The position numbers and the translations under genes are program-made. Below are positions 41,364 to 55,733 of a stretch of DNA of 64,000 bases, one piece after another. The notes under the pieces are model-generated. The model was not told the origin of the DNA, made no database searches, and saw only the letters and a program-made list of their open reading frames with translations. This DNA is from Neotabrizicola shimadae (GTDB taxonomy: Bacteria > Pseudomonadota > Alphaproteobacteria > Rhodobacterales > Rhodobacteraceae), in contig NZ_CP069370.1 of assembly GCF_019623905.1 (NCBI RefSeq), positions 186,001 through 250,000 on the forward strand, written 5' to 3'. Numbering within the stretch: the stretch's first letter is position 1; each line of letters begins with the position of its first letter.

Positions 41364-41486
41364 TGCTCGGGGGTCCCGTTACCGCGTTGGGGCGAGATAC
41401 GCGCTTGTTGCGGGAATTTCAAGCGTTGGCACCAAGGCGCGCGGCCTGGCGGCGGGGCCTCGCATTTCCGCGTGCCCATGCTATAT

Positions 41487-41502
41487 ATTCATTGTCCGCA
41501 GT
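41487..41502. promoter_or_regulatory. Degenerate SqrR-type box at the sqrR promoter
   Basis: TATATTC followed by the same spacing as the rhodanese box, but the right half reads CAGT instead of GAAT. The left half (TATATTC) and TTGT in the spacer are shared with the perfect box at 50815. It lies 12 bases before the sqrR ATG. It might be a weak autoregulatory site or just the -10 region. Confidence 0.3.
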
Positions 41503-41514
41503 GTGAGGCGTTCC

Positions 41515-41889
41515 ATGTCCTTCGACAAGCCAATGGCCATCCCCGGCGCGCCGGGTTCGGATGACGATGGTTGCGCGACACTTTCGGCCGATGACATGAT
41601 GGTGCAGGCCACGGCTGCCGCGGCCTTCCTGAAGGCCCTGTCGCATGAAGGGCGGCTGATGATCTTGTGCCATCTGTCCTCGGGCGAGAAGTCGGTGACC
41701 GAGTTGGAGCAGAAGCTGGGCTCGCGCCAGGCTGCCGTCAGCCAGCAGCTGGCGCGGCTGCGGCTGGAGGGTCTGGTCAGTTGCCGCCGCGACGGGAAGG
41801 CAATGTACTACTCGATCCAGGATCCGAAGGTGATCCGCATGATCGACCTCGTCTATGACATGTTCTGCCGCGAACCGCGTCTGGCCTGA
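41515..41889 (+). CDS. sqrR: ArsR-family persulfide sensor, SqrR/BigR-like
   Basis: 124 residues from ATG 41515. A winged helix-turn-helix with LKALSHEGRLMILCHLSSG, recognition helix RQAAVSQQLARLR and wing SCRRDGKAMYYSI. C52 (MILCHL) and C118 (DMFCRE) are 66 apart, as the disulfide/tetrasulfide-forming C41 and C107 of Rhodobacter capsulatus SqrR; C20 matches its C9 by the same offset. An extra C90 is present. SqrR represses sulfide-metabolism genes until polysulfide cross-links the cysteines. It is divergent from secE; the predicted target in this window is the rhodanese gene at 50847. Confidence 0.82.
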   Translation: MSFDKPMAIPGAPGSDDDGCATLSADDMMVQATAAAAFLKALSHEGRLMILCHLSSGEKSVTELEQKLGSRQAAVSQQLARLRLEGLVSCRRDGKAMYYSIQDPKVIRMIDLVYDMFCREPRLA

Positions 41890-49837: not shown

Positions 49838-50731
49838 TTAGCGGAGATGGCCGATGGTGAAGGTGGGGGACATCATCTTCTCGTTGAGCCAGGTTTCGAG
49901 CAGGGCCTTGTCGGGGTTGTCGGAATCGGGGCCGAAGGATTCGGCGTCGATGCCGCCCGAGACGTAGAGCGAGTCGATGCCTTCGCCCATGGCGCCCTGG
50001 ATGTCGGTGGCGATGCCGTCGCCCACGGCGAGAAGCTGGGCGTCGTCCTTCAGGCCAAGCCGGGCGAGGCGGCGGCGGGCGAGGTCGTAGATCGGCGGGT
50101 GGGGCTTGCCGAAGTACAGCGCCGAGCCGCCCATTTCCTCGTATTCGCGGGCCAGCGCGCCGGCGCAGTACAGGAGCTTGTCGCCGAAGTGGACCACGAT
50201 GTCGGGGTTGGCGCAAAGGAAGGGCAGGCCGAGGGTCTTTCCCATCAAAAGCTCTCCCCGGTAGTCGGCCGGGGTCTCGGAGAGGTCGTCGCGCAGGCCG
50301 GTGCAGACGATGCCCTCGGCGTCCTGAAGCTTGCTGACGCGCTGGACCTTTGGCTGGCTGGCGGCCAGTTCCGCCAGGTCCTGGGCGAAGTCGGTGTAGA
50401 AGGGTTCATCCTTGGGCGCGCCGATGGGATAGACCTTGCGGCCCACGGCGCCGGACAGAAGCGCATACTGCGCGGCATCGCCCGAGGAGACCACACCATC
50501 CCAGGCGTCGCGCGGCACGCCAAGGCTATCCAACTGGGCGATGACCGAAGAGGCGGGGCGCGGGGCGTTGGTCACGAGCATGACCTTGCCGCCGGTGCGG
50601 CGGAAGCCCTGCAGCGCGGCGACCGCAGCGGGGAAGGGGCGCTTGCCGTCGTGCAGGCAGCCCCAGAGGTCGCACAGGAGCGCGTCGTAGCGGGGGGCGA
50701 TGGCGGCGAGGGAAGGGATGATCTCGGTCAT
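49838..50731 (-). CDS. HAD-superfamily class IIA phosphatase
   Basis: 297 residues from ATG 50731 (AGAGGAG upstream); a longer frame continues into the rhodanese gene on the other strand and is rejected. The nucleophile motif reads YDALLCDLWGCLHDG (first D, with W where many have D+2 = G-x), motif II VTNAPRP and C-terminal VGDGIATDIQGA. This is the NagD-like family often found near ribF in Rhodobacterales. It probably dephosphorylates a small metabolite; substrate unknown. Confidence 0.86.
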   Translation of the reverse strand: MTEIIPSLAAIAPRYDALLCDLWGCLHDGKRPFPAAVAALQGFRRTGGKVMLVTNAPRPASSVIAQLDSLGVPRDAWDGVVSSGDAAQYALLSGAVGRKVYPIGAPKDEPFYTDFAQDLAELAASQPKVQRVSKLQDAEGIVCTGLRDDLSETPADYRGELLMGKTLGLPFLCANPDIVVHFGDKLLYCAGALAREYEEMGGSALYFGKPHPPIYDLARRRLARLGLKDDAQLLAVGDGIATDIQGAMGEGIDSLYVSGGIDAESFGPDSDNPDKALLETWLNEKMMSPTFTIGHLR

Positions 50732-50814
50732 GGCGGGCTCCTCTGTTGCCCCGTTGTGGCCGCTGGCGCGCAGGAAGGGAAGGGCGGGATTGCCTGCCGG
50801 CTGGGCGCACTTAT

Positions 50815-50830
50815 ATTCTTTGTGTCGAAT
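50815..50830. promoter_or_regulatory. SqrR-type operator, ATTC-N8-GAAT
   Basis: ATTC-TTTGTGTC-GAAT, a perfect inverted repeat with the half-sites and 8-base spacing known for Rhodobacter SqrR. It ends 16 bases before the rhodanese ATG, where it would cover the transcription start or ribosome-binding region. It also faces the divergent HAD gene about 84 bases away. Confidence 0.65.
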
Positions 50831-50846
50831 GTGATGGGGGGGGACG

Positions 50847-51242
50847 ATGCGCCTGACTGCCCGGATGCTTCTTGTCGCGGCGCTTGCGCTGCCGGTCCTG
50901 CCTGCCGGCGCGGGCGAGGTCGTGGTGACGCAGATGTCGGTCGAGGAGATGAAGGCCAGTGGCGCGCTGGTGGTGGACATCCGCACGCCCGAGGAATGGG
51001 CAGAGACCGGGGTGATCGAGGGGGCGAAGCTCGTCACCTTCACCGATGCTGAGAGCTTCCTGGCAACGGTGGGGCCGGATCTGGCGGACGGGCGCGACCT
51101 CGTTCTGGTGTGCCGGTCGGGGCGGCGAAGCGGTGCCGCAGCCGAGGCGCTGCAATCGCTGATCCCGAACCGCATCGTCTCGCAGGACGGGGGCATGAAC
51201 GTGTTGATCGGCGAGGGCTACCAGGCGGTGCCGCCGGGCTGA
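50847..51242 (+). CDS. Periplasmic rhodanese-like sulfurtransferase
   Basis: 131 residues. A signal peptide (about 1-22, ending PAGAGE) precedes one rhodanese domain. The catalytic C89 sits in the loop CRSGRRSG, a six-residue loop typical of small-sulfur-acceptor rhodaneses; the earlier DIRTPEEWAETG motif is intact. It should move sulfane sulfur from thiosulfate or persulfides in the periplasm. A SqrR-type operator precedes it and a strong terminator follows, so it is a one-gene unit. Confidence 0.9.
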   Translation: MRLTARMLLVAALALPVLPAGAGEVVVTQMSVEEMKASGALVVDIRTPEEWAETGVIEGAKLVTFTDAESFLATVGPDLADGRDLVLVCRSGRRSGAAAEALQSLIPNRIVSQDGGMNVLIGEGYQAVPPG

Positions 51243-51246
51243 ATGA

Positions 51247-51276
51247 CAAAGGGCCGGGGATGACCCCGGCCCTTTG
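51247..51276. terminator. Bidirectional terminator between rhodanese and ppaC
   Basis: A 13-pair stem CAAAGGGCCGGGG / CCCCGGCCCTTTG with an ATGA loop, five bases after the rhodanese stop and 19 before the ppaC stop. The AAA/TTT ends give a short T-run in both directions. Confidence 0.85.
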
Positions 51277-54404: not shown

Positions 54405-54848
54405 ATGAACCACGACAGCCGCCTTTCCTCGGTCCTGCACGCGCTCTTGCACATGGCGGAGCGGGAGGGGCCGATGACCTCGGAAGAGTTGGGCAAGTGC
54501 CTAGGCACGCATCCGGTTGTGGTGCGGCGCACGATGGGGTTGTTGCGGGAGGCGGGGCTTGTCGCCTCGGACCGGGGCAAGGCGGGGGGCTGGCGCATCG
54601 TGGCGGATCTGGACCGCGTGACGCTGCGCCAGTTGCACGAGGCCCTGGGCGAGCCGGCGCTGTTTGCCGTGGGAAACCGGAACATGGCGCCGCAATGCCT
54701 GGTGGAGCAGGCGGTGAACGCGGCCCTGGACGGGGCCTTTGCCGAGGCGGAGGCGCTTCTGCTGGAGCGGTTTGGCCGGGTGACGCTGGCGATGCTGGCC
54801 GAGGATTTTGCGCGGCGTCACGCCGCGCGTCGGCAGGACAAGGGATAG
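54405..54848 (+). CDS. Rrf2-family transcriptional regulator
   Basis: 147 residues from ATG 54405. Winged helix-turn-helix (DSRLSSVLHALLHMAE; LGTHPVVVRRTMGLLREAGLV; wing GKAGGWRIV). It has only two cysteines (in GKCLG and PQCLVE) and lacks the three-cysteine iron-sulfur cluster set of IscR or NsrR, so it resembles the YwnA-like branch. It probably represses itself and the flavin oxidoreductase four bases downstream. Confidence 0.87.
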   Translation: MNHDSRLSSVLHALLHMAEREGPMTSEELGKCLGTHPVVVRRTMGLLREAGLVASDRGKAGGWRIVADLDRVTLRQLHEALGEPALFAVGNRNMAPQCLVEQAVNAALDGAFAEAEALLLERFGRVTLAMLAEDFARRHAARRQDKG

Positions 54849-54851
54849 GAC

Positions 54852-55733
54852 ATGCAGGATGTGATCGTGGTGGGCGGCAGCTATGCCGGGATGGCGGCTG
54901 CGCTGCAATTGCTGCGGGCGCGGCGGTTGGTGACCATCGTGGACGAGGGGCTGCGGCGGAATCGCTTTGCCAGCCATTCGCACGGCTTCCTGGGACAGGA
55001 TGGCGTGGACCCGGCGGCGATTGCCGCGCAGGCGCGGGCGCAACTGGCGGCCTATCCGACGCTGACCTGGGTGGAGGGGCGCGCCGTGGCGGCCGGGGGG
55101 CGGAAGGACGCCTTCCGCGTGGACCTGGACGGCGGCGCGGTGCTGGAGGGGCGGCGGATCCTGCTGGCGACGGGCGTTGCGGATGAGTTGCCCGCAGTGC
55201 CGGGGCTGGCGGAGCGGTGGGGGAAATCGGTGTTCCATTGCCCCTATTGCCACGGCTACGAACTGGACCGGGGTCGGATCGGCGTGATCGCCACTGGGCC
55301 GATGTCGGTGCACCAGGCGCAGCTTCTTCCAGAGTGGGGCGAGGTGACGTTTCTATTGAACGGGGCGGCGGAGCCGGACGAGGCCGCGCGGGCGGATCTT
55401 GGCTCGCGCGGGGTGGCGGTGGAGCCGGTGCCGGTGGCGCGGATCGAGGGCCGGGCCGAGGTGGTGCTGGCCGACGGGCGGCGGCTGGAGTTCGCGGGGC
55501 TGTTCACCGCGGCGCGCTGCGTGCCGGCGAGCCCATTGGCGGAAGCGATGGGTTGTGCGCTGAGGGAGACGCCGATGGGGGTCCAGGTGGCGACGGCCGA
55601 CACGAAGGAGACGAGCCTGGCCGGGGTCTTTGCCTGCGGCGACGTCGCGCGTGTGCCGCATTCGGTGTCTTTGGCGGTGGGCGACGGGGCCTGGGCCGGG
55701 GCGCAGTTGCACCGGTCTTTGGTGTGGCCCTGA
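54852..55733 (+). CDS. Thioredoxin-reductase-like FAD/NAD(P) oxidoreductase
   Basis: 293 residues. FAD-binding GGSYAGMAA near residue 8, the redox-active CPYC at about residue 134 (FHCPYCHGYELD) and the C-terminal FAD motif ACGDVAR. Shorter in the NADPH-binding segment than true TrxB. The pair with an Rrf2 regulator recurs in bacteria and is often linked to thiol or electrophile stress. Converges on the TraB/GumN gene nine bases away. Confidence 0.88.
   Translation: MQDVIVVGGSYAGMAAALQLLRARRLVTIVDEGLRRNRFASHSHGFLGQDGVDPAAIAAQARAQLAAYPTLTWVEGRAVAAGGRKDAFRVDLDGGAVLEGRRILLATGVADELPAVPGLAERWGKSVFHCPYCHGYELDRGRIGVIATGPMSVHQAQLLPEWGEVTFLLNGAAEPDEAARADLGSRGVAVEPVPVARIEGRAEVVLADGRRLEFAGLFTAARCVPASPLAEAMGCALRETPMGVQVATADTKETSLAGVFACGDVARVPHSVSLAVGDGAWAGAQLHRSLVWP

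What the first reader, a model, noticed from the sequence alone, without database searches (positions are those of the whole stretch)
50815..50846. Perfect SqrR operator in front of a periplasmic rhodanese
ATTC-N8-GAAT ends 16 bases before the ATG of a rhodanese with an intact C89. The sensor gene is 9 kb away in the same window. This predicts a small sulfide-detoxification regulon reaching the periplasm. The sqrR promoter carries the same left half, TATATTC, with a broken right half.
Basis: partly seen in the sequence, partly recalled or inferred. Interest (0 to 1): 0.6.

Follow-up and report, generated by a model that had tools for sequence, protein, structure and literature searches.

The report
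Sulfide-sensor operator before exported rhodanese
A short inverted-repeat DNA switch, almost certainly bound by the bacterium's own sulfide sensor SqrR, sits on the promoter of a sulfur-handling enzyme that appears to be exported, and the same switch recurs at about eight sulfur genes in this genome and in its sister species: a well-supported new member of a known kind of regulon.

Summary
In detail: ATTC-N8-GAAT at 50815-50830 ends 16 bases before the ATG of a rhodanese (50847-51242) with an intact catalytic Cys89. By itself the 16-mer is not significant (0.64 expected per window), and over ten of the genome's 24 exact copies lie in an unrelated hairpin repeat. Independent evidence makes it convincing. 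The sister species has a perfect operator at the same gene with a different spacer. Of 27 orthologues at least 57% identical, 18 match CATATTC-N8-GAATATG at 11 or more of 14 positions (0.2 expected). The same site precedes PDO+sulfurtransferase, a second rhodanese, TrxC, a YgaP-like membrane protein, a DUF302 protein, an AhpD-like protein and a dsrE operon, in both species. The sensor in the window is a bona fide SqrR (both sensing cysteines) and the only strong one in the genome. Corrections: the conserved operator is CATAT-N10-GAATATGA, not ATTC-N8-GAAT; its left arm doubles as the -10 box; the 9-kb linkage to sqrR is incidental; the sqrR promoter site is weak and not conserved beyond the genus. 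R. capsulatus already has an SqrR-controlled rhodanese (rcc01557), so this is a new member of a known kind. Binding, induction and export are untested.

The parts
50811..50834 (+). Operator as conserved in evolution: T-TATATTC-tttgtgtc-GAATGTG-A (family consensus CATAT-N10-GAATATGA); strict ATTC-N8-GAAT core at 50815-50830
50790..50817 (+). Sigma-70-like promoter TTGCCT-16-TATATT; the -10 hexamer (50812-50817) is the left arm of the operator
   Evidence: -35-like TTG at about the same distance in most orthologues
50847..51242 (+). Single-domain rhodanese, 131 aa, with signal-peptide-like N-terminus (MRLTARMLLVAALALPVLPAGAGE) and catalytic Cys89 (CRSGRRS loop)
   Evidence: (PF00581, 40 bits, cut-off 22)
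51247..51276 (+). Strong GC hairpin just after the stop codon (stem AAAGGGCCGGGG/CCCCGGCCCTTT); likely two-way terminator, making the rhodanese a single-gene transcript
   Evidence: z -6.8
41518..41889 (+). sqrR: ArsR-family persulfide-sensing repressor; Cys at the positions of R. capsulatus SqrR C9, C41 and C107
   Evidence: 6o8k, E 1e-40; 64% identity, only match at E<=1e-20 in this genome
41484..41506 (+). sqrR promoter: TATATTC-N8-CAGTGTGA; left arm resembles an extended -10 (TGCTATAT), right arm degenerate; possible weak operator
49841..50731 (-). Divergent neighbour: HAD-IIA family hydrolase (TIGR01459); not part of the sulfur system

Best explanation
The site is an operator of SqrR, the ArsR-type persulfide-sensing repressor encoded in the same window. 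In the absence of sulfide-derived persulfides the SqrR dimer binds the inverted repeat, whose left arm is the -10 box and whose right arm covers the transcription start, so RNA polymerase is shut out. When sulfide enters, persulfides link Cys41 and Cys107 of SqrR, SqrR leaves the DNA and the rhodanese is made. The rhodanese is exported and moves sulfane sulfur (thiosulfate, persulfide) in the periplasm. It is one of about eight SqrR promoters in this genome that together make a sulfide detoxification and persulfide-repair set: PDO plus Blh-type sulfurtransferase, a cytoplasmic rhodanese, TrxC, a YgaP-like membrane protein, a DUF302 protein, an AhpD-like protein beside sqr, and a dsrE2-plus-molybdoenzyme operon. 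Shown here: sequence, conservation, the shared gene set, the cysteines. Inferred from R. capsulatus work: the switch chemistry. Inferred from sequence only: export and substrate.
For: Exact match to the published RcSqrR site ATTC-N8-GAAT (quoted in PMC9774250). Sister species: perfect TATATTC-GGATCACC-GAATATG at the orthologue, spacer 1 of 8 identical. 18 of 27 orthologues at >=57% identity score >=11/14 against 0.2 expected; N7, N9 and reversed controls give none. The unscored flanking column +22 is A in 20 of 25. Same operator at the same genes in both species: arms 101/112 identical, spacers 29/64, p about 1e-10 (caveat: sites were chosen for their arms). The gene set is coherent. SqrR identity and cysteines. 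R. capsulatus: rhodanese rcc01557 and trxC are induced over 10- and 20-fold by sulfide and by loss of sqrR (PMC9995734, PMC10044876), and a published trxC primer there contains ATATATTC-CGCAACGC-GAATATG directly at the ATG.
Against: No binding or expression data for this organism. The string alone is not improbable. Part of the left-arm conservation could be the -10 box. Nine of 27 close orthologues, and most distant ones, lack a good site, so the control is not universal. Other ArsR proteins in the genome (19 PF01022 matches) could in principle bind similar DNA. Export is judged by eye. The genome's own sqr promoter has only a 9/14 site, conserved as such in the sister species.
Confidence: 0.86

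Rival explanations
1. Only the -10 promoter element is conserved, and the right arm GAAT is chance.
For: The left arm is also a -10 box with a TTG at -35 distance in most orthologues.
Against: The right arm GAATATGA, which no promoter element explains, is at least as well conserved as the left, with fixed spacing (N7/N9 controls give nothing), and the same pair of arms marks the other sulfur genes in two species.
Confidence: 0.05
2. The operator belongs to a different regulator (another ArsR protein, or a factor with a similar inverted repeat) and the gene set responds to something other than sulfide.
For: 19 ArsR-domain matches in the genome; ArsR sites are often alike.
Against: Only one protein at SqrR level, the motif equals the published RcSqrR site and the R. 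capsulatus trxC site, and the genes are sulfane-sulfur genes.
Confidence: 0.07
3. The hit is one more copy of the genome's CAAATTCCTTCGAAGGAATTTG hairpin repeat, which also matches ATTC-N8-GAAT.
For: More than ten of 24 exact ATTC-N8-GAAT sites in this genome are that repeat.
Against: The spacer TTTGTGTC and the flanks do not match the repeat, and no copy of it is in the window at up to 3 mismatches.
Confidence: 0.01

Closest known systems
SqrR regulon of Rhodobacter capsulatus (sqr, rcc01557 rhodanese, trxC and others)
   Same: SqrR with the same sensing cysteines; ATTC-N8-GAAT operator; a rhodanese and trxC among the targets (PMC9995734, PMC10044876)
   Different: Whether rcc01557 is the orthologue of this rhodanese could not be tested (no named R. 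capsulatus genome reached); here a PDO and Blh-type sulfurtransferase carry an operator, while in R. capsulatus the PDO and PDO-rhodanese fusion are reported as not SqrR-regulated
BigR operon of Xylella and Agrobacterium (blh: sulfurtransferase plus persulfide dioxygenase)
   Same: Homologous repressor; controls a persulfide dioxygenase and sulfurtransferase, found here as two separate genes
   Different: The window protein scores 93 bits against the BigR model cut-off of 155; the regulon is scattered over the chromosome rather than in one operon
YgaV-ygaP of Escherichia coli
   Same: SqrR/BigR-type repressor controlling a rhodanese; similar operator (PMC9774250)
   Different: Here the YgaP-like membrane domain and the rhodanese are separate genes with separate operators
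PspE and GlpE thiosulfate sulfurtransferases
   Same: Single-domain rhodaneses; PspE is periplasmic (own knowledge)
   Different: The window protein is far below the PspE and GlpE model cut-offs (27 vs 102 and 23 vs 102 bits)

Membership tests
SqrR/BigR-type persulfide-sensing repressor (window 41518-41889) | Closest relation to SqrR among ArsR proteins | tested here: met
   Best PDB matches are R. capsulatus SqrR structures 6o8k and 13ct/6o8l-6o8o, E 1e-40; next is BigR at 1e-19; 64% identity
SqrR/BigR-type persulfide-sensing repressor (window 41518-41889) | Two sensing cysteines equivalent to Cys41 and Cys107 | tested here: met
   Aligned ILCHL and MFC columns
SqrR/BigR-type persulfide-sensing repressor (window 41518-41889) | NCBIfam BigR equivalog cut-off (155 bits) | tested here: not met
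   92.8 bits; it is therefore not filed as BigR proper
SqrR/BigR-type persulfide-sensing repressor (window 41518-41889) | Persulfide-dependent loss of DNA binding | not testable with these tools
   needs protein
SqrR operator | ATTC-N8-GAAT inverted repeat over a promoter | tested here: met
SqrR operator | Conservation at the same gene in relatives | tested here: met
SqrR operator | SqrR binding in vitro or in vivo | not testable with these tools
   needs gel shift or footprint
Rhodanese sulfurtransferase | Rhodanese domain with catalytic Cys in C-x-x-G-x-R loop | tested here: met
   PF00581 40.4 bits over cut-off 22.2; Cys89, Gly92, Arg94 invariant in 17 homologues
Rhodanese sulfurtransferase | Periplasmic location of this member | tested here: inconclusive
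   Basic start, long hydrophobic stretch and A-G-A before the domain, seen in the sequence; no signal-peptide predictor was run and there is no experiment
Orthologue of R. capsulatus rcc01557 | Reciprocal best match and conserved synteny | not tested
   No R. capsulatus genome was reached

The most novel reading that the evidence does not exclude
SqrR control reaches the periplasm: an exported rhodanese works as the outer end of the sulfide response, taking sulfane sulfur out of circulation or handing it to periplasmic acceptors, and so helps to reset the cytoplasmic sensor, in parallel with TrxC inside the cell. This would give a location and a role to a rhodanese whose acceptor is stated as unknown in R. 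capsulatus.
Probability: 0.3. Interest if true: 0.5.

Novelty: new member of a known kind. Interest (0 to 1): 0.36.

Why it matters
It gives a refined SqrR operator (CATAT-N10-GAATATGA) and an eight-promoter regulon for a bacterium where none was described in the papers reached, including genes of unknown role (DUF302, the AhpD-like protein, the stand-alone YgaP-like membrane domain). It raises a testable question about what an exported rhodanese does in the sulfide response.

Tried and rejected
Plain ATTC-N8-GAAT genome scan as regulon finder: rejected, over ten of 24 exact hits are a hairpin repeat. Chance explanation from the window alone: not excluded by the string but excluded by conservation. 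Functional linkage with sqrR from 9-kb proximity: rejected, about 63 kb apart in the sister species and no SqrR within 5 kb of 80 homologues. Autoregulation of sqrR: not conserved in 30 SqrR genes of the family (mean best score 8.1 vs 7.8 shuffled), partly kept in the sister species; left open. Cytochrome c' (C1:3192550) and fatty acid hydroxylase (C1:359093) sites: dropped, not reproduced in the sister species. A conserved full operator at sqr: not found, 9/14 in both species. Finding R. capsulatus itself to prove orthology with rcc01557: failed. The founding SqrR paper (PMC5338557) is not held.

Full report
WHAT IS THERE. The window (C1:186001-250000 of a 4.39-Mb genome whose relatives are Rhodobacteraceae) holds ATTCTTTGTGTCGAAT at 50815-50830, 16 bases before the ATG of a 131-aa protein at 50847-51242. 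The protein is a single rhodanese domain (PF00581, 40.4 bits over a cut-off of 22.2) with a signal-peptide-like start and an active-site loop CRSGRRS; Cys89 is invariant in 17 homologues. A sigma-70-like promoter TTGCCT-16-TATATT is predicted just upstream; its -10 hexamer (50812-50817) is the left arm of the inverted repeat. A very stable hairpin follows the stop codon. The neighbours are a divergent HAD hydrolase and a convergent DHH/DHHA2 protein, so the rhodanese is probably transcribed alone.

IS IT MORE THAN CHANCE? Not as a string: the 16-mer is expected 0.64 times in a shuffled window, and at one mismatch the window has fewer hits than shuffles (11 vs 14.4). In the whole genome there are 24 exact places, but more than ten of them are copies of a hairpin repeat, CAAATTCCTTCGAAGGAATTTG, often beside a sister hairpin. 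This repeat is commoner still in the sister species and absent from the window. Any plain ATTC-N8-GAAT scan is confounded by it.

CONSERVATION AT THE SAME GENE. The only other genome of the genus (G001) has the orthologue at 90% identity with TTTATATTC-GGATCACC-GAATATGA in front: both arms kept, one of eight spacer bases shared. In 80 named loci from genome contigs the promoter regions were scored against CATATTC-N8-GAATATG. Of 27 orthologues at 57% identity or more, 18 score 11/14 or better against 0.2 expected from dinucleotide shuffles; spacings N7 and N9 and the reversed pattern give none (the N6 and N10 controls are raised, probably because CATATAT can be read in a second register). In the more distant 51 the excess is smaller (8 vs 0.2). 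Aligned sites show TTG at -35 distance, then CATAT, ten variable bases, then GAATATGA; the flanking A, which was not part of the scored pattern, is present in 20 of 25. ATATG. This alignment was made by seeking the pattern, so column values inside the pattern are biased upwards; the shuffle test is the fair measure. The loci are related, so they are not independent.

THE SENSOR. The ORF at 41518-41889 is closest to R. capsulatus SqrR among all solved structures (6o8k, E 1e-40; BigR 1e-19), and the columns of Cys9, Cys41 and Cys107 are cysteines. It is the only protein in the genome that matches SqrR at E<=1e-20 (64% identity), although 19 ArsR-domain matches exist. In the sister species sqrR and the rhodanese lie about 63 kb apart and none of 80 homologous loci holds SqrR within 5 kb, so the 9-kb proximity means little.

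THE REGULON. Sites with at most two mismatches to ATATTC-N8-GAATAT or CATAT-N10-GAATATG that lie directly in front of genes, plus the exact ATTC-N8-GAAT site before the AhpD-like gene, mark: this rhodanese; a Blh-type persulfide dioxygenase with a Blh-type sulfurtransferase behind it; a cytoplasmic rhodanese; thioredoxin 2 (TrxC); a YgaP-like membrane domain; a DUF302 protein; an AhpD-family protein close to a sulfide:quinone oxidoreductase gene; and dsrE2 followed by a molybdopterin oxidoreductase, an FeS protein and a DmsC-like anchor. In G001 the same seven genes, reached by the operator search, carry the operator (tblastn identities 78-94%), and the eighth site lies at the corresponding place beside lgt before a different gene and then a different dsrE-family gene. 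Across the eight pairs the arms are 101/112 identical and the spacers 29/64. Sites in front of a cytochrome c' and a fatty acid hydroxylase were not reproduced and are dropped. The sqr promoter itself has only a 9/14 site, conserved as such.

HOW IT MOST LIKELY WORKS. In R. capsulatus SqrR represses by binding the promoter and leaves it when persulfides make a tetrasulfide link between two cysteines; the rhodanese rcc01557 is induced more than tenfold by sulfide or loss of sqrR, has thiosulfate sulfurtransferase activity, and its deletion prolongs sqr expression; its acceptor is unknown (PMC9995734). TrxC is induced over twentyfold and re-reduces SqrR (PMC10044876); the trxC deletion primer printed there contains ATATATTC-CGCAACGC-GAATATG (read on the other strand) directly at the ATG, the same operator as here. 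ATTC-N8-GAAT as the deduced RcSqrR site is quoted in PMC9774250. By the same logic SqrR here covers the -10 box and the start of the rhodanese transcript. Export of the rhodanese rests on its N-terminus alone. I infer that it handles thiosulfate or persulfide sulfur in the periplasm.

THE sqrR PROMOTER. TATATTC-ATTGTCCG-CAGTGTGA at 41484-41506 shares the left arm, which also resembles an extended -10 (TGCTATAT). The sister species keeps the left arm and part of the right, but 30 SqrR genes of the family show no such site above background. Weak self-control within the genus is possible and unproven.

NOVELTY. The kind of system is known; the gene set, the refined operator and the likely export of the rhodanese are what is added. 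Whether this rhodanese is the orthologue of rcc01557 could not be tested because no R. capsulatus genome was reached.

Noticed in passing
Genome G000, e.g. C1:264865, 278847, 576423/576445, 756355, 881288, 1112903, 2209722, 2276583, 3856311; many more copies in G001; none in window: Dispersed hairpin repeat CAAATTCCTTCGAAGGAATTTG, often paired with CAAGTTTCTTCGAAGAAACTTG about 22 bp away (UUCG-like tips); REP-like or terminator-like, and a trap for motif scans.
   Followed up: partly
L077 (CP059262.1): Public record titled 'Exiguobacterium profundum isolate SSD5' carries the same locus as G001, an alphaproteobacterial genome of the window's own genus (90% identical rhodanese, same operator); the name looks wrong.
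   Followed up: partly
window 54405-55733: Rrf2-family regulator followed by a thioredoxin-reductase-like flavoprotein with a CPYC motif, about 3 kb past the rhodanese; R. capsulatus has an SqrR-induced flavin disulfide reductase (rcc02679), but no operator-like site was found in front of this one.
   Followed up: partly
window 51247-51276: Perfect GC-rich hairpin between the convergent rhodanese and DHH/DHHA2 genes, very stable (z -6.8).
   Followed up: yes
L065, genome C1 about 261063-266522; L237 in G001: dsrE2-led operon with a molybdopterin oxidoreductase, FeS protein and DmsC-like anchor behind an operator-like site; in the sister species the site beside lgt precedes a different gene and a different dsrE, so the content of this locus differs between the two.
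   Followed up: partly
L037, L088, L093 (orthologues): Several orthologous rhodaneses start with RRFL or KRRFL, resembling a twin-arginine (Tat) signal, while the window protein has a Sec-like start; the export route may have switched.
   Followed up: no
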